Source: a virus. Taken from it: a stretch of 35,452 bases of DNA. Below, one piece after another: positions 3,703 to 32,429 of this stretch. The notes beneath the pieces are model-generated. The model worked only from the letters and a program-made list of their open reading frames with translations. It ran no database searches and was not told the origin of the DNA. Every line of letters begins with the position of its first letter. Position 1 is the stretch's first letter. Location: positions 1 through 35,452 of IMG/VR virus record IMGVR_UViG_3300038701_000272. One strand, given 5' to 3'. The position numbers were made by a program, and so were the translations under genes.

Positions 3703-4094
3703 TCTGCGGCCTCATAGAGCTTACCGCCAATGGCTGACTTGCCGACGACGCGGATGCGCTTTTGCCTGAGTAGTAGGGCGCATGTGCGGCGGGCGTAGCT
3801 GTCGGACATGCCGTAGCGGTCTTGCAAGGCGCGTGTGGTCAGCGGCGGGTGGTTGCGTGCGAGGAACATCGCTCGGGCTGCGGCTTTCTCGGCGGGCGTC
3901 TCTGCGGCGCGCTTGGCGAGGGCTGCGGCTGCGCCTTGCCTGCCGTTCTCCTGCCTGACCTCTTGCAGGCTAGCGCTGGGCGGGGCTGATCGCTTGTGTC
4001 CCTCGGACTTGGCGAGGTGCGCCCAGCGCAGGGCCAATACGCCTTCAAGGCGTGCCGGAATTATTGCAGCGTCGGGGATAGATTGCTCTGTCAT
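3699..4094 (-). CDS. Hypothetical protein, possible winged-helix C-terminal domain
   Basis: A 131-residue basic protein. The N-terminal half is alanine- and arginine-rich. The C-terminal part (about 85-128: PPLTTRALQDRYGMS, ARRTCALLLRQKRI, then VVGKSAIGG) has the pattern of a helix-turn-helix followed by a beta wing, as in small DNA-binding proteins. This is inference from pattern only. The start at 4094 has AGGAGA 8 bases upstream. It lies between two unknown early genes and may be a regulator or a replication accessory protein. Confidence 0.65.
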   Translation of the reverse strand: MTEQSIPDAAIIPARLEGVLALRWAHLAKSEGHKRSAPPSASLQEVRQENGRQGAAAALAKRAAETPAEKAAARAMFLARNHPPLTTRALQDRYGMSDSYARRTCALLLRQKRIRVVGKSAIGGKLYEAAE

Positions 4095-4108: not shown

Positions 4109-4687
4109 TTAAAACGAAATGGGGTCGCCGCCTGATTCGAACCAGCTATTCGGCAGCGTCTTCTTTTCCGGCTTTGCATTTATTGCCTCAGAGCCGGGGA
4201 ATTGAGATTTGACTTTCCCAACCAGCCCGCCTGCCGTGTCGTGAAACATCTGAAGCGCCAATGCGGCCTCGCGCATTGTGAAGATAACCAGATCGGGCCG
4301 CTGGGCTTTGACCTCCTGCCAGCGTCGGTTGTCTTCGATGATGGCGAAGCGGAAGCCGTCGAGATCATACTCCCACAGATTGCATGGCTCATGGCCTCGG
4401 GCTTGGGCTTCGGCGTCCATAGCGGCGAGCGCGCGGATGCCGATGGCCGCCAGCTTCGAGGCGGTCTCGGGGTCTGCGTTGTCGATGGCCTCGTTGAAGT
4501 CGCCCATCAGCTTTCCGTAGCGTGCGGCGGTCTCGACGCTGACCAGTTCCGGCAGGCGGTCGATGCCCCACTTCTTGTCCATGTCGTGCGCCGCCTTGTC
4601 GAAGGGCGCGATGGCGTAATCCGTCCGGCGTTCTTGGGGCGTCGAGGTGGGTGATACGATGCGGTCCTTGCGTCTCTTCACGGTCAT
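4109..4687 (-). CDS. Hypothetical protein (192 aa)
   Basis: A 192-residue soluble protein with no family I recognise. AAGGAC lies 8 bases before the ATG at 4687. The N terminus is lysine/arginine-rich (TVKRRKDR), followed by a charged, mixed helix/strand body without transmembrane segments. It sits downstream of the primase-helicase gene in the same operon, suggesting a role in replication or nucleotide metabolism, but nothing in the sequence fixes this. The 14-base gap to the next gene fits co-transcription. Confidence 0.65.
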   Translation of the reverse strand: MTVKRRKDRIVSPTSTPQERRTDYAIAPFDKAAHDMDKKWGIDRLPELVSVETAARYGKLMGDFNEAIDNADPETASKLAAIGIRALAAMDAEAQARGHEPCNLWEYDLDGFRFAIIEDNRRWQEVKAQRPDLVIFTMREAALALQMFHDTAGGLVGKVKSQFPGSEAINAKPEKKTLPNSWFESGGDPISF

Positions 4688-11147: not shown

Positions 11148-11706
11148 CCGCAACCACACCCTGACCGACGAAAAGATCGAGCGTTATGGCCGCACCTTCT
11201 ACCGCATCCGTCACGCCGATGGGCGCGAGGGGGGCTGGGCAGAGACGCTGGACAGCATACCACCAGGCAGCACTGCGGAGTTTTACGGCGATGCGCTTTG
11301 CTTTAAATGGGGCAAGTTCTGTGGCGGCGTGTTCTATGGCGGCAAGTTCTGGGGCGGCGAGTTCTACGGCGGCGATTTCCAAGACGGCGAGTTCTACGGC
11401 GGCACGTTCCAAGACGGCACGTTCCAAGACGGCAAGTTCTACGGCGGCGAGTTCTACGGCGGCGAGTTCTACACATCCCCGTGCTGCGCCCAACGCAGCG
11501 ACGGCTACATGTTTGTCGCCAAATACGTCGATGATGATCTGCGTATTTGGGCGGGATGCCGCAACTTCTCGTGGGACGAGGCAGTCGCGCACTGGAATGA
11601 CGACCATGAGCGCGGCGCAGAAAGCCAGCGCATCATTCACTTTCTGAAAGCGCAGGCCGAAGCCGAGCGTGATCGAGATGCAAAAAGGGAGAAGACCGAT
11701 GACTGA
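11140..11706 (+). CDS. FxGG pentapeptide-type repeat protein
   Basis: A 188-residue protein with eleven consecutive five-residue repeats at residues 59-113, consensus x-F-x-G/D-G (for example KFCGG, EFYGG, TFQDG). A central Phe every five residues with small residues between is the spacing of pentapeptide-repeat right-handed quadrilateral beta-helices, although the usual A/S at i-2 is replaced by G. The N-terminal 58 residues and the C-terminal 75 (VAKYVDDDLRIWAGC, DEAVAHWNDDH) form separate domains. Known pentapeptide proteins of similar shape mimic DNA (MfpA/Qnr). A host-takeover role is possible but unproven. Confidence 0.75.
   Translation: MTDRNHTLTDEKIERYGRTFYRIRHADGREGGWAETLDSIPPGSTAEFYGDALCFKWGKFCGGVFYGGKFWGGEFYGGDFQDGEFYGGTFQDGTFQDGKFYGGEFYGGEFYTSPCCAQRSDGYMFVAKYVDDDLRIWAGCRNFSWDEAVAHWNDDHERGAESQRIIHFLKAQAEAERDRDAKREKTDD
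11314..11478 (+). repeat. 15-bp tandem repeats coding for FxGG units
   Basis: Eleven 15-bp units, mostly of the form RAGTTCTACGGCGGC with variants such as ACGTTCCAAGACGGC. Several units are identical at DNA level (GAGTTCTACGGCGGC recurs), which suggests recent expansion and probable variation in copy number. Confidence 0.85.
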
Positions 11707-12412
11707 CCCGACCTACACCCCCGACGCGCAGGAGCGTTTGCGCACCTTCCTCGAAACGCATCAACTGCGCCATGACGTCGGCAGCGCGGAAAGCTGCTGC
11801 ACCATGACCGCAATCAATATCGCCATGACCGGACGGGTCACGGATGAGACTCCTGACTGCATGTCGCTCGTCATCGGACGCTGGATCATCCCCGTGCAGG
11901 ACGCGATGCCGTTGGACCGACTGAACGGCCCGCGCTGGCGCGAAGCAGTGCTGCGCGCGCCCGGCACTGGCCGCGATCCCGCCACGGAACAGGCGCGCGC
12001 CAAGATTGCGCTGGATTGGATGTGGGGCACGGTCCTGCCGCAGGTGCAGGCGCTGGCGGATGATCGCGGTTTTGGCGCTGAGTGGCGGCGCATGTGCGAG
12101 GATCAAACCGCAGAGGCGGCGAGGGCGGCGGCGGCGTGGGCGGAGGCGGCGGCGGCGGCGGCGGCGGCGGAGGCGGCGAGGGTGGAGGCGGCGTGGGCGG
12201 AGGCGGCGGCGGCGGCGGCGGCGGCGGAGGCGGCGTGGGCGGCGGCGAGGGCGGCGTGGGCGGAGGCGGCGGCGGCGTGGGCGGCGGCGAGGGCGGCGTG
12301 GGCGGTGGCTCTCAACAAAACCCCCGACTTCTGGGACGCAGTAAACCCCGAGAGCCTGCTGGTCCGCATGATCGACGCGCAGCCCGACCAACTGCCGGGG
12401 AGGGACGGGTGA
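11699..12412 (+). CDS. Alanine-rich repeat protein
   Basis: A 237-residue protein. The N-terminal 135 residues form an ordinary domain (CTMTAINIAMTGRVTDE, VIGRWIIPVQDAMPLDRLNG). Residues about 138-203 are almost only Ala with Glu, Trp, Arg (AAWAEAAAAAAAAEAARVE and similar), predicted to be a long helix or coiled coil. A short normal C terminus follows. Similar Ala/Trp/Arg repeat tails occur on phage and Imm-5-like proteins, so an immunity-like role is conceivable. The ATG at 11699 has GGGAGA upstream and overlaps the preceding gene by 8 bases; a longer upstream version is not supported. Confidence 0.65.
   Translation: MTDPTYTPDAQERLRTFLETHQLRHDVGSAESCCTMTAINIAMTGRVTDETPDCMSLVIGRWIIPVQDAMPLDRLNGPRWREAVLRAPGTGRDPATEQARAKIALDWMWGTVLPQVQALADDRGFGAEWRRMCEDQTAEAARAAAAWAEAAAAAAAAEAARVEAAWAEAAAAAAAAEAAWAAARAAWAEAAAAWAAARAAWAVALNKTPDFWDAVNPESLLVRMIDAQPDQLPGRDG
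12112..12306 (+). repeat. GCG/GGC triplet-rich tract in alanine-repeat gene
   Basis: Nearly pure (GCG)n with GAG, TGG and AGG interruptions, made of at least two long near-identical copies (about 54 bp). This is a classic slippage-prone sequence. The tract is open in all three plus frames: Ala here, Gly in the next, Arg in the third. Confidence 0.8.
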
Positions 12413-14703: not shown

Positions 14704-15048
14704 TCAGAAGTCTTTTACTTCCTGCGGCGTAGCATCCACCACAGCCTGAGTCGCAAGCCACCCATCCGCCAAATCCTTAGCTTGTTGTCTAACAGCTTCA
14801 TGCGCTGCTGCGTCATCTCCGCCATTTATGATCGCGGCAAATTCTGACCCAAAAGTGGGGTAACTTACTGCGATAATTGCCTCGATGATTTCACTGCGGG
14901 CGGCAGTCACCTGAACAACCGCTTCTTTGCAGGACCATCCTGCCGGAGCTTCTTCTGTCGCCGGAACTTCTTTGTAATCCCAATGGATGCGGAGTTTTTG
15001 CCCAATGACCTGATACTTAGGCAGTTTGTCTTTAGATTTTACGTGCAT
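14704..15048 (-). CDS. Hypothetical protein downstream of DGR (114 aa)
   Basis: A 114-residue soluble protein, AGGAGG upstream of its ATG at 15048. It has an N-terminal strand-rich part (QVIGQKLRIHWDYKEVPATE) and a C-terminal helical part (EAVRQQAKDLADGWLATQA) and is a possible tail fibre accessory protein by location. Its start overlaps by 10 bases the frame of the reverse-transcriptase remnant, so its ribosome binding site lies inside the old RT tail. Confidence 0.6.
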   Translation of the reverse strand: MHVKSKDKLPKYQVIGQKLRIHWDYKEVPATEEAPAGWSCKEAVVQVTAARSEIIEAIIAVSYPTFGSEFAAIINGGDDAAAHEAVRQQAKDLADGWLATQAVVDATPQEVKDF

Positions 15049-15197
15049 CGCTGCGCCTCCTGTATTTTGGCTTTGCTTGCGGCAATATGTTTCTTAACAT
15101 CCGCCCTCATGTGTTGATGCCAAAGGGCTTTTGCACCTCCGTGCTTGCACCAACCCCAATAAGAGCCTGCTCCGCCTGACCCAGTTCTTCGGTGTCC
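15039..15197 (-). pseudogene. Probable remnant of DGR reverse transcriptase C terminus
   Basis: An open frame of 52 codons without its own start. It contains SYWGWCKHGGAKALW followed by HQHMRADVKKHI. The SYxGWxxHxxxxxL pattern is what I remember from C-terminal ends of DGR reverse transcriptases, and this is exactly where such a gene should end: downstream of the template repeat, on the same strand. No polymerase motif (such as YxDD) or other RT core is present anywhere in the window. I infer that the RT body, about 300 codons, has been deleted. The family match is from memory and needs a profile search. Confidence 0.5.
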
Positions 15198-15199
15198 CT

Positions 15200-15237
15200 A
15201 CCAAACTGTTTTGGTCAACTGTTTCACCAAGAGGTGA
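15200..15237 (-). ncRNA. Two small hairpins 3' of template repeat (possible DGR RNA spacer)
   Basis: ACCAAA/TTTGGT (15200-15205, 15210-15215) and TCACC/GGTGA (15224-15228, 15233-15237) form two adjacent hairpins with 4-base loops, 30-70 bases past the template repeat. In studied DGRs the template RNA continues into a structured spacer that the reverse transcriptase complex needs. These hairpins may be what is left of it. Confidence 0.4.
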
Positions 15238-15267
15238 GGATGCATCTCCACGTTTATTTAGGCGGAT

Positions 15268-15392
15268 GAGCCGTGTGCCGATATTCCGATTCGCATTGCT
15301 CGCATCATTATTCGAATTCAAGTAGAACCTGCCTGCATTCGCGCCATTATTCGCGTTACTGCTGACATGCACCACCTGTGATGCTGACGTGG
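15268..15392 (-). repeat. DGR template repeat (TR), 125 bp
   Basis: This is the adenine-rich copy of the 3' end of the receptor-binding gene. On the coding strand it is dense in AAY codons (NNGAN, LNSNNDASNANRN). Aligned without gaps to the variable repeat, 26 of its 36 adenines are changed in the VR, while only 1 of 89 non-adenine positions differs (a T to G). That adenine bias is the signature of mutagenic retrohoming. It lies 53 bp downstream of the VR, same orientation. The 110-codon ORF crossing it is not taken as a gene. Confidence 0.93.
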
Positions 15393-15436
15393 AATACGCT
15401 GAAGATGTCACCCTATCTTGTTTCATTTATGTCACA

Positions 15437-16807
15437 CTAAAAACAGAGCCGCGCGCCGAAAACCCGAAGCGCATCGCCCGCATCACTCGCCGAATTCAAG
15501 CAGAACCCGCCCGCAATCGCGCCATTACTCGCGCTACCGCCGACAAGCACCACCCGCGAAGCCGACGCGGTAGCATAGTGATAGTCAGTGAGGTATGTCG
15601 TTGACGACCCACCCGTGTTGTCACCGCTCAGGAAATAAGCGCCAGTGTTCAGGATATTTTGAATGTATCCAGAACCCGTAGGGAACGAAGAACTCAGGAG
15701 CGTGTAGCCAGTCGTAGTGCCGTCCGCAAAATCCTCGTAGTCGTTCGTCACATGGACATTGCCCGACGAGCCTTCGTTGACATTGATGCCGTCTGCCCAC
15801 GTCCAGCAGTTGCCATACCAATTCTCAATGCCACGGTAGGACATGTAAGCCGTCCCCGGCTTTGCCCCTGCGCTGGGCTGCGTGCCGTCCGTAGATGCAT
15901 TGCCCAAAGCATTGGACGCGCCCGCGATGGTATGAGGGCTGTCGTTCTGGTTGGACGAAGATGCAAGATAAGACCCGTTGATGTTGCCGTCGCCCAACTC
16001 GCTCTGCGTCGAGAACGTGCCATACTCCACCAGATACAGCATCTGGATTGCCGACCAGAGCGCGAAGTCCAGTTGGTGCCAGCCTGTTCCGTTGTTCGCA
16101 GCAAGCGTTCTGCACTCAGCCCGCGTCACGCCAACCAGAGGGTATACGCCAGAGACCGACGCCATCTTGTCATTGGCGAGGTCAAGGTTGCCCGTCATGT
16201 CGTCAAGGTTAAGGCCCGACTTGTAGGTGCTGTCCGTCGCGTCCAGATAGCAGGCGTCATAGGCCCCGATGTAGCGATGAGAGACCTCAACGCCTGCTTT
16301 GATGAATGCGGGGTGAACCTGATAGCCCGCCAAAGGCAGATCTGAAATCTCCCAAGTGTTCGTGTTGCCGCTAAGAACATGACGAAAATAGAATTTCGGA
16401 ATTTCCACCATGACGTTGCCATCAGTGCCGTCGATGTTGGCTGCCGTGCCGTCAAGTTTCTGAGTGCTGTCGCTGGGGTTGAGGTAATAGTTTAGCGAGC
16501 CGTCGGCATTCAGGACACAACGCTTCATGCCTTGATGAATTGCTGTGACTGTGCTGGGCGTAGTGTTCGCCGTGTAGGTGTCCGTGCTGGCGTTCCATGC
16601 CAGATTTGCACCGACATTCAGACGGGCTGCTGTGAGATCAGCGAAAGCGCCAGTGGAAGGCGTCGTGGCACCAATGGCAGCGCCGTCAATGGTGCCCCCG
16701 TCGATGTTCACCGAAGAAATCGGAACCGCGCCATCAACCTTGTTAATGGCCTCGTTGATCTTGTTGCGAACGCTCAGGCCGCTCTCGCCGTTAGTGATCG
16801 TGGTCAT
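15437..16807 (-). CDS. DGR target: receptor-binding tail protein with variable C-terminal lectin-like domain
   Basis: A 456-residue tail protein. The N-terminal part (1-110) looks like a fibre stalk (SVNIDGGTIDGAAIG, STGAFADLTAARLN). The C-terminal 340 residues resemble the formylglycine-generating-enzyme/C-type lectin fold used by DGR targets: IPKFYFRH, FALWSAIQMLYLVEYG, MSYRGIENWYGNCWTW. The last residues (414-454) are encoded by the variable repeat and end GARLCF, the usual closing strand. GGAG is 8 bases before the ATG. It probably sits at the tail tip and binds the host surface; the VR positions would line the binding face. Confidence 0.88.
   Translation of the reverse strand: MTTITNGESGLSVRNKINEAINKVDGAVPISSVNIDGGTIDGAAIGATTPSTGAFADLTAARLNVGANLAWNASTDTYTANTTPSTVTAIHQGMKRCVLNADGSLNYYLNPSDSTQKLDGTAANIDGTDGNVMVEIPKFYFRHVLSGNTNTWEISDLPLAGYQVHPAFIKAGVEVSHRYIGAYDACYLDATDSTYKSGLNLDDMTGNLDLANDKMASVSGVYPLVGVTRAECRTLAANNGTGWHQLDFALWSAIQMLYLVEYGTFSTQSELGDGNINGSYLASSSNQNDSPHTIAGASNALGNASTDGTQPSAGAKPGTAYMSYRGIENWYGNCWTWADGINVNEGSSGNVHVTNDYEDFADGTTTGYTLLSSSFPTGSGYIQNILNTGAYFLSGDNTGGSSTTYLTDYHYATASASRVVLVGGSASNGAIAGGFCLNSASDAGDALRVFGARLCF
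15446..15570 (-). repeat. DGR variable repeat (VR), 125 bp
   Basis: The VR codes for residues 414-454 of the 456-residue tail protein. It is collinear with the template repeat at 15268-15392 (offset 178 bp). Changed codons include TR AAT to VR GCG, CTT, GTT and GAT, and TR CAT to VR CTT. Unchanged blocks (GTGGTG, TTGAATTCG, CGGCTC) carry few or no adenines. The repeat pair ends at CGGCTC, which would be the IMH-side boundary. Confidence 0.93.
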
Positions 16808-16809
16808 GT

Positions 16810-16959
16810 TCAGGCTCCATCATTCCATGTTTCGTCATCCACCCAGATGTTCTCATCGCGCCAGAAGCCATTGGACAAAATCCAGCGCAGAAGGTTCTGA
16901 TGAAGACGAACGCCCAGAGGGCTGTCAAATCCGCGTAGGGGGCTAAGAATCACTCGCAT
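16810..16959 (-). CDS. Small protein (49 aa) sharing a motif with a tail-tip protein
   Basis: A 49-codon gene, AGGAGG before its ATG at 16959, ending 3 bases before the DGR target ATG. Its C-terminal half, WILSNGFWRDENIWVDDE then TWNDGA, closely matches WILHDGFWRDEKIWVDDQ then AWNDGD in the 231-residue tail protein at 21285-21980. It may be a leader or attachment peptide for the receptor-binding protein, or a relic of a shared module. Confidence 0.6.
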   Translation of the reverse strand: MRVILSPLRGFDSPLGVRLHQNLLRWILSNGFWRDENIWVDDETWNDGA

Positions 16960-21288: not shown

Positions 21289-21980
21289 CTGCGCAAAAGT
21301 CCAGAAAAAGTGGCACTACTCGAACTCCCGCCTTCGACCTTACGCCCCCAGACAATCTCCTTGTCCTGCAAGTCCTCCACGAAATCCAAGCCCTTGTCGC
21401 CCGGATAGACCGACTTCTGATACCCGCTCGAAAAGCGGCGAACCCGCGCGCGCTTGAGGTCAATCAGCTTGTTCTCAACCAGCAATTCAATCGTGCCGAA
21501 CTCCGGCCCCTCCGAGATGTTCATCTCGTCCATGTAGCCGGAAAAAATTTCCGTCAGAGAAAAGTAAACATCACCATCATTCCACGCCTGATCGTCTACC
21601 CAAATCTTTTCGTCACGCCAGAAACCGTCGTGCAAAATCCAAAGCGCAGAACCTGCGTTAAACCGGCGTATGCCGAAATAGAGATTGCACACGCGCCCCT
21701 GATAGGGAGACTGAAGGGCAAGGCTGATGACCTCGCTATTCATGCCGGTCAGGGTAATCGTCGCGCCCCTGACAGCAATCTCGCTGGTCTCTTCCACCGC
21801 TGAAATGTCCAGCAGGTTGCCGGTGCCGATGTAGGTGTTGCCGTCAATCGTCGCGTCGCCCACGCCCGTCCAGAGCCGGATCGGCGCGCTATCAAACAGC
21901 AACTCAACCGCGAAGAACGGCTGCACTGTTTCGTCATCAAGTGCGCTTGCAAGTGTCGCGGTCAGGTCTCTTGTCGCCAT
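21285..21980 (-). CDS. Tail-tip protein (DUF2163-like), 231 aa
   Basis: A beta-rich 231-residue protein between the tape-measure side and the J-like protein. Features such as VELLFDSAPIRLWTGVGD and NLLDISAVEETSEIAVRG suit a tail-tip hub component (lambda gpL/DUF2163 position). Residues 113-136 carry a GFWRDEKIWVDD module also found in the small gene at 16810. The ATG at 21980 overlaps the previous stop as TGATG; a TTG one codon earlier is less likely. Confidence 0.7.
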   Translation of the reverse strand: MATRDLTATLASALDDETVQPFFAVELLFDSAPIRLWTGVGDATIDGNTYIGTGNLLDISAVEETSEIAVRGATITLTGMNSEVISLALQSPYQGRVCNLYFGIRRFNAGSALWILHDGFWRDEKIWVDDQAWNDGDVYFSLTEIFSGYMDEMNISEGPEFGTIELLVENKLIDLKRARVRRFSSGYQKSVYPGDKGLDFVEDLQDKEIVWGRKVEGGSSSSATFSGLLRR

Positions 21981-31393: not shown

Positions 31394-31690
31394 GACCTTC
31401 ACATGCCACACCTAGCCCGACCTCACCTAGACCGACAGGCCCCGCCTAGACGCACCCCGCCCGGCCATAGCTCACCGGACCTTGCCCCGACCGCCATGCC
31501 AGACCTCGCCAAGCCCTGCCACGCCTTGACCGCCTCGCCGCGCCATGCCTCGCCATGCCTCGCCTCACCCAGACCGCCGCGCCGTGCCGTGCCTGTCCAG
31601 ATCATTCCTGGCCACGACCGCCATGCCTGACCGTGCCTCGCCACGCCGCGCCACACCACGCCAAACCTCGACCGCCTTACCTTGACCAGC
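31394..31690 (-). repeat. Punctuated pentanucleotide array A
   Basis: The gap between portal and the 164-residue gene. On the plus strand it reads GACCGCC, then n pentamers of the form NNNCC (mostly NNGCC), then two bases, then GACCGCC again. Heptamers begin at 31430 (as GACCGAC), 31489, 31528, 31572, 31616, 31670 and 31684 (GACCAGC), giving n = 10, 6, 7, 7, 9 and 1. On the coding strand this is (GGNNN)n broken by GGCGGTC. No CDS is credible here; apparent ORFs are repetitive G/A/R/W peptides. Confidence 0.9.
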
Positions 31691-32190: not shown

Positions 32191-32212
32191 TGCTTCCTCC
32201 ATTGTTGATGTT

Positions 32213-32429
32213 GACCGCCTAGCCCGACCGCGCCGAGCCACGCCGCGCCGCGCCTCACCTAGACCGCCCTGCCGAGCCCCGATCTGCCGAGCCACGCCTT
32301 GACCGCCATGCCACAACTCGCCAATCCGAGCCACGCCTTGCCGTATCATACCACGACCGCCATGCCGTTCCGTGCCTCTCCGAGCCGTGCCTCGCCAGAC
32401 CGCGCCACGACCGCCTTTCCGTGACCGCG
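32213..32429 (-). repeat. Punctuated pentanucleotide array B
   Basis: Same design as array A, in the gap between the 252-residue gene (stop 32459) and the 164-residue gene (start 32190). Heptamers GACCGCC begin at 32213, 32262, 32301, 32355, 32409 and 32423 (as GACCGCG), with n = 8, 6, 9, 9 and 1 NNNCC pentamers plus two bases between them. The array ends on the same side as array A with a single-pentamer unit. GACCGCCATGCC occurs twice here and twice in array A. Confidence 0.9.

What the first reader, a model, noticed from the sequence alone, without database searches (positions are those of the whole stretch)
15268..15570. Diversity-generating retroelement: TR/VR pair in the receptor-binding gene
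Ungapped comparison of the two 125-bp repeats shows 26 of 36 template adenines substituted in the variable repeat (to G, C and T) against 1 of 89 other positions. The VR codes for residues 414-454 of a 456-residue tail protein with lectin-like motifs. This adenine-specific pattern is the known DGR signature, so this phage has varied its host-binding tip by mutagenic retrohoming.
Basis: seen in the sequence. Interest (0 to 1): 0.92.

Follow-up and report, generated by a model that had tools for sequence, protein, structure and literature searches.

The report
Phage mutation cassette missing its enzyme
This phage carries a real gene-diversifying cassette (a template repeat and a mutated copy in its tail-tip gene), but a deletion of about 900 bases removed the reverse transcriptase that drives it, and comparison with dozens of relatives shows that such phages lose this enzyme again and again.

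Summary
The TR/VR pair is real and as described: TR 15268-15392, VR 15446-15570, both on the minus strand. 26 of 36 TR adenines but only 1 of 89 other positions differ (Fisher p 1e-17). VR is the 3' end of a phage tail gene whose predicted structure best matches TaqVP, a DGR variable protein with a C-type-lectin fold. In relatives the order is tail gene/VR - TR - structured spacer - RT. Here a ~919-bp deletion relative to the closest RT-bearing relative removes the RT start and about 300 codons, leaving an in-frame ~45-codon C-terminal stub joined to TR and spacer at an 8-bp microhomology. The spacer keeps 12 of 12 covariation-supported pairs. The stub has dN/dS 0.07 against the intact RT, and TR/VR have hardly drifted apart, so the loss is recent. 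RT-less but TR-bearing cassettes occur 7 separate times on the tail-protein tree with different endpoints, and also in a cultured phage with a complete genome (S-EIV1). Best reading: a formerly active DGR, now disabled, freezing one tail-tip allele. Use of another element's RT in trans is not excluded. Decayed DGRs are already known from crAss-like phages.

The parts
15437..16807 (-). Target gene: 456-aa phage tail protein (phrog_5302) with C-type-lectin (FGE subtype) fold; VR at its C-terminus
   Evidence: phrog_5302, E 1.8e-90; model pLDDT 85.7; Foldseek best hit TaqVP 5vf4 E 5e-11, weaker hits to FGE, Mtd 1yu0-1yu4 and TvpA 2y3c; profile hit to 5vf4 E 1.4e-7
15446..15570 (-). Variable repeat (VR), codons ~413-454, stop codon at 15437-15439
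15268..15392 (-). Template repeat (TR); AAY-rich; lies in a 110-aa ORF (15094-15426) that is probably not a gene
   Evidence: same VR-TR spacing (178 nt) as RT-bearing relative L006
15182..15243 (-). Spacer RNA element between TR and (lost) RT: hairpin 15224-15237 and two-part hairpin 15182-15208; all 12 covarying pairs kept
   Evidence: model R1, E 8e-17; window is in the training set
15167..15174 (-). Deletion junction: CGGAGCAG, 7/8 identical to CGGCGCAG at the distal end in L006; 919 bp of L006 absent here
15039..15174 (-). C-terminal stub of the DGR reverse transcriptase (L006 RT residues ~300-347), in frame to its stop, RT start codon lost
   Evidence: 80% aa identity over 46 aa, E 3e-19; dN/dS 0.10/1.39
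14704..15048 (-). Small gene that follows the RT in relatives and directly follows the tail gene in relatives that lost the cassette; start overlaps the RT stub; function unknown (context only)
   Evidence: no Pfam or PHROG match

Best explanation
A phage DGR that worked until recently and has been disabled by one deletion. Shown: VR is a copy of TR changed almost only at adenines, at the end of a lectin-fold tail protein; relatives have VR-TR-spacer-RT in that order; here most of the RT (start codon and ~300 codons) is missing while TR, spacer RNA and an RT stub remain. Inferred: a deletion at short microhomology removed the RT; since then TR is an inert relic and one VR allele, fixed at the moment of loss, is inherited like any other gene (a frozen tail tip). 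Whether the freezing was selected or drift is not known. Other relatives show further stages: spacer lost, TR cut into, and TR plus RT entirely gone.
For: A-specific TR/VR pattern. No RT in the 35.4-kb record; only the RT C-terminal stub, 80% identical to L006. Clean 919-bp gap against L006 with microhomology at the joint. RT found in 42 of 79 records with this tail protein, immediately after TR. RT stub dN/dS 0.07, like the live tail gene (0.06), so nearly all divergence from L006 happened while RT was under selection. TR/VR non-adenine mismatch 1/89, typical of RT-bearing cassettes (35/2656), while RT-less ones as a group have 16/436 (Fisher p 0.0016). Recurrent loss: 7 separate RT-less, TR-bearing tips, at least 10 RT presence/absence changes forced by well supported branches, different breakpoints. 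L060-L063, recovered from several assemblies, share a deletion absent from RT-bearing sister phages. Cultured S-EIV1 with a complete genome: TR/VR 26/33 vs 2/91, RT reduced to 29 codons, no RT elsewhere.
Against: No reads or second isolate of this phage: the junction pattern was not found in any other viral contig (near-identical records may be hidden). TR and spacer are well kept, as also in S-EIV1, which an inert relic need not show; recency explains it but so would use in trans. Inactivity itself was not measured. The record is linear and may lack a short end piece.
Confidence: 0.82

Rival explanations
1. Non-autonomous DGR: TR-spacer RNA is still made and an RT from a co-infecting or resident related phage uses it in trans, so VR still diversifies.
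For: All 12 covarying spacer pairs intact; TR 112/124 and spacer 87/101 identical to L006 while coding flanks are ~74-80% identical; S-EIV1 also keeps TR and spacer while losing RT. In BPP-1 the spacer recruits the RT complex (PMC12875486) and a phage lacking avd, TR and brt is a retrohoming target when these are supplied from a plasmid (PMC3240598).
Against: Other RT-less cassettes lost the spacer or part of TR (L013, L018, L026, L041, L047, L060-063), as expected of decay; recency alone explains conservation here; identical VRs in the RT-less genotype L060-L063 (weak because these are near-clonal).
Confidence: 0.1
2. Assembly artefact or incomplete record: the phage has an RT that was skipped at the junction or lies beyond the contig ends.
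For: Metagenome contig, linear, no second copy of the junction found.
Against: Flanks share only 7 of 8 bases at the joint, far too short for an assembler overlap; ends carry HNH endonuclease and terminase small subunit, with terminase, portal, protease, capsid, tail and lysis genes between, so the genome looks near complete; the RT stub occupies the RT's normal place; the same kind of loss is present in a complete isolate genome.
Confidence: 0.06
3. Ordinary duplicated fibre domain without any DGR.
For: Two similar tail-protein segments lie next to each other (phrog_5302 also matches the TR-encoded peptide).
Against: 26/36 A against 1/89 non-A changes in one direction only; RT stub next to it; 33 RT-bearing relatives with the same A-specific pattern (754/1050 A against 35/2656 non-A).
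Confidence: 0.01

Closest known systems
Incomplete DGR cassettes of crAss-like phages (crAssphage LMMB group, PMC7290462; Epsilonunovirus, PMC11054128)
   Same: Tail-collar fibre target homologous to this tail protein (crAss records among hits), order target-VR-TR-RT, no avd; many genomes with truncated or deleted RT, with or without TR.
   Different: Different phages (those are ~97-kb gut phages); here breakpoint, spacer-RNA conservation and recency of loss are resolved, and loss is placed on a tree.
Bordetella phage BPP-1 DGR (mtd/avd/TR/brt)
   Same: A-specific TR to VR change at the 3' end of a C-type-lectin tail tip gene; structured spacer after TR.
   Different: No avd match in the window or 17 relatives; here no RT; no inverted repeat of 6 bp or more right after VR.
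Synechococcus phage S-EIV1 (KJ410740.1)
   Same: Homologous tail protein, TR/VR with A-specific differences, spacer RNA match, RT gone from a complete genome.
   Different: Keeps the N-terminal 29 codons of RT instead of the C-terminal end: an independent deletion.
Psychrobacillus phage Perkons (MT325768.1)
   Same: Homologous tail protein with TR/VR (32/42 A, 0 non-A).
   Different: RT intact next to TR: the apparently working form.
TR-VR remnant all3226 in Anabaena/Nostoc PCC 7120 (PMC7517822) and RT/TR-less T. denticola isolates (PMC4891356)
   Same: Diversified target kept after the engine was lost.
   Different: Bacterial chromosomes; no RT stub described in the passages read.

Membership tests
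Diversity-generating retroelement (DGR) | VR and TR near-identical repeats differing at TR adenines | tested here: met
   26/36 A vs 1/89 other, p 1e-17
Diversity-generating retroelement (DGR) | DGR-type reverse transcriptase in the cassette | tested here: not met
   PF00078 no match in the record; only residues ~300-347 remain; intact in relatives with YCDD and GNYTSQ motifs
Diversity-generating retroelement (DGR) | VR at the 3' end of a ligand-binding (often C-type-lectin) target gene | tested here: met
Diversity-generating retroelement (DGR) | Structured spacer RNA 3' of TR | tested here: met
   12/12 covarying pairs present; 9 of 12 pairs with double changes over 15 distinct sequences, 0/500 shuffles
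Diversity-generating retroelement (DGR) | IMH/IMH* and hairpin downstream of VR (BPP-1 type) | tested here: not met
   VR and TR share the ending GGCTC and diverge after it, but no inverted repeat of 6 bp or more follows VR; none is seen in RT-bearing L006 either, while L009 has an 8-bp one
Diversity-generating retroelement (DGR) | Accessory protein Avd | tested here: not met
   PF05635 absent from the window and 17 relatives with this cassette, so not lost here; crAss DGRs also lack avd (PMC7290462)
Diversity-generating retroelement (DGR) | Ongoing VR diversification in the population | not testable with these tools
   no reads; positive control in relatives only: L069 vs L066/L068/L070 (97.7-98.7% identical) differ in VR at TR-A positions
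Decayed (RT-less) DGR | TR/VR retained with RT truncated or deleted relative to intact homologues | tested here: met

The most novel reading that the evidence does not exclude
The cassette is a non-autonomous DGR: having lost its own RT it keeps TR and spacer RNA because RTs of related phages in the same cell diversify its tail tip in trans, the DGR counterpart of a non-autonomous transposon.
Probability: 0.09. Interest if true: 0.75.

Novelty: new member of a known kind. Interest (0 to 1): 0.42.

Why it matters
It shows that a textbook-looking DGR signature need not mean an active DGR. It gives a tree-based case that phages repeatedly switch the hypermutator off by losing the RT while keeping the diversified tail tip. 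It makes testable whether this is selected freezing of a good receptor-binding allele, simple decay, or dependence on an RT in trans; the cultured phage S-EIV1 offers a bench system. Surveys that demand an RT miss such loci; surveys that look only for repeats overcount active DGRs.

Tried and rejected
RT elsewhere in the window: PF00078, tblastn with 19 related RTs, and YxDD motif scan, none beyond the stub. A second TR/VR pair in the window: none. Avd: none. Known Rfam family for the spacer: none at gathering threshold; a single-sequence fold of the window spacer is not better than shuffles (z 0.2), so the structure claim rests on covariation only. Isolate prophages by genome contigs: only distant hits. 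Close DNA relatives among phage records: none. Another contig with the same deletion joint: none. Packaging-module relatives with this tail gene: none with a full-length match in 24 records, so the tail/DGR module is mosaic. First fold model with 11 sequences was poor (pLDDT 46) and was not used. The small gene after RT as an Avd: rejected, because it also follows tail genes without any DGR and has no family match. The wide scan for more RT-less cassettes used only the best 80 of 159 relatives.

Full report
OBSERVATION. The two 125-base segments at 15268-15392 and 15446-15570 form a single two-copy repeat family. Read on the minus strand, the first is the template: 26 of its 36 adenines differ in the second copy (18 G, 6 T, 2 C), against 1 of 89 other positions; Fisher p = 1.2e-17. 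Reversing the roles abolishes the pattern. The second copy covers codons ~413-454 of the 456-aa ORF 15437-16807(-).

TARGET. The ORF belongs to the tail family phrog_5302 (E 1.8e-90). [quoted passage not shown] The AlphaFold model (pLDDT 85.7) finds TaqVP first (E 5e-11), then formylglycine-generating enzymes, Mtd of BPP-1 and TvpA of Treponema at weaker E-values. That it is the receptor-binding tip is inferred from these families.

THE MISSING ENGINE. The record has no RT domain. Of 79 records of relatives with this tail protein, 42 carry one, placed right after TR. tblastn with 19 of those RTs finds in the window only the last ~46 residues, at 15179-15042(-), 80% identical to the RT of L006. 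Aligned to L006, the window is collinear through tail, VR, TR and spacer, then jumps 919 bases to the end of the RT gene; the joint 15167-15174 is CGGAGCAG, against CGGCGCAG at the distal end in L006. Deletion by short homology is an inference from this joint. Both contig ends carry expected phage end genes (HNH endonuclease; terminase small and large subunits), so a hidden RT at the ends is unlikely.

SPACER RNA. Between TR and RT the relatives share a structured element. A 12-pair structure over 16 sequences (15 distinct) is paired in 99.4% of cells, with 9 pairs changed on both sides and 0 of 500 shuffles as good; sliding the partner by 1-3 columns destroys it. A covariance model finds it at the same place in members not used to build it (for example L053, L075, L065) and in S-EIV1 and cr50_1. 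The window keeps all 12 pairs. No Rfam family matched the window. In BPP-1 the spacer folds, recruits the RT complex and primes cDNA synthesis (PMC12875486), so the window's template RNA may still be competent if an RT were supplied.

AGE OF THE LOSS. Over 42 codons of the RT stub, window and L006 differ at 25 bases but only 7 residues: dN 0.10, dS 1.39. The live tail gene gives 0.13 and 2.34. The stub therefore evolved under constraint for nearly all of the time since the split; the deletion is young on that scale. TR and VR agree with this: non-adenine mismatches are 1/89 here, 35/2656 in 33 RT-bearing cassettes, and 16/436 in six RT-less cassettes that keep TR (Fisher p 0.0016; window included in the six).

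RECURRENCE. On a tree of tail proteins with the VR left out (52 rows), the RT-less but TR-bearing state sits on 7 separate tips (window, L013, L018, L026, L041, L047, L061), and well supported branches force at least 10 changes between RT present and absent. Breakpoints differ: after the spacer (window), inside the spacer (L013, L041), just after TR (L047), inside TR (L018, L026, L060-063); the nearest non-DGR relatives L001-L004 have neither TR nor RT. Direction (loss) is shown directly where RT stubs remain (window, L013, L018) and, for L061, by a deletion of about 1.14 kb against its sister L065. L060 and L061-063, from several assemblies and 99.7% identical, share one deletion and one VR, while RT-bearing sister phages L066/L068/L070 differ from L069 in VR at TR-A positions at 97.7-98.7% overall identity. 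The cultured, completely sequenced Synechococcus phage S-EIV1 has VR, TR (26/33 A, 2/91 other), spacer and only the first 29 RT codons, with no RT in its 79-kb genome; this rules out assembly error as a general cause. Psychrobacillus phage Perkons shows the intact form.

MECHANISM. Shown: past A-specific retrohoming, RT deletion, retained TR and spacer. Inferred: microhomology-mediated deletion; inactive cassette; frozen VR. Not decided: selection for a fixed tail tip, drift, or use of an RT in trans. The trans reading has precedent in BPP-1 experiments in which a phage lacking avd, TR and brt was targeted by plasmid-supplied factors (PMC3240598), but most other RT-less cassettes here lost spacer or TR, which fits decay.

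KNOWN OR NEW. Incomplete DGR cassettes with truncated or deleted RT are described in crAss-like phages (66 of 91 genomes, PMC7290462; PMC11054128), whose tail-collar proteins are distant homologues of this one, and losses of the engine in cyanobacteria and Treponema (PMC7517822, PMC4891356). So this is a new member of a known kind. What is added is the exact scar, its recency, the conserved spacer RNA and the tree-based recurrence. In the papers searched I did not find S-EIV1 described as carrying a DGR relic, but that search was limited.

Noticed in passing
L225 (S-EIV1, KJ410740.1 17305-24207): VR 3777-3900, TR 3969-4092, spacer 4127-4194, RT stub 4215-4304: Cultured cyanophage with TR, VR and spacer RNA but the RT cut to 29 codons; the stub is annotated as a hypothetical protein.
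   Followed up: yes
window 15182-15243 and the spacer between TR and RT in ~30 relatives: Covariation-supported two-hairpin RNA element between TR and RT, with no Rfam match in the window.
   Followed up: partly
L039:4265-4322: Spacer-like RNA match (E 0.0009) shortly after a tail gene without TR or RT, possibly an older relic; A/T-rich, may be chance.
   Followed up: no
window 11296-11505, + strand: Array of 15-bp units coding GGxFY-type repeats in a 153-aa ORF (11186-11647).
   Followed up: no
window 12068-12343: GCG-rich repeat array, inside a 247-aa plus-strand ORF (11669-12412).
   Followed up: no
window 31416-31687 and 32199-32426: Degenerate CCGCCATGCC-type repeats in two blocks between portal and terminase genes.
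   Followed up: no
window 16817-16884 and 21574-21641: A 68-bp segment repeated at 75% identity near two tail genes.
   Followed up: no
window 14704-15048, and after the tail gene in L001, L007, L041, L044, L049: Small gene for a YQV.G..(L/I)R.HW(D/N)-type protein that follows this tail gene with or without a DGR; possibly a fibre chaperone; no family match.
   Followed up: partly
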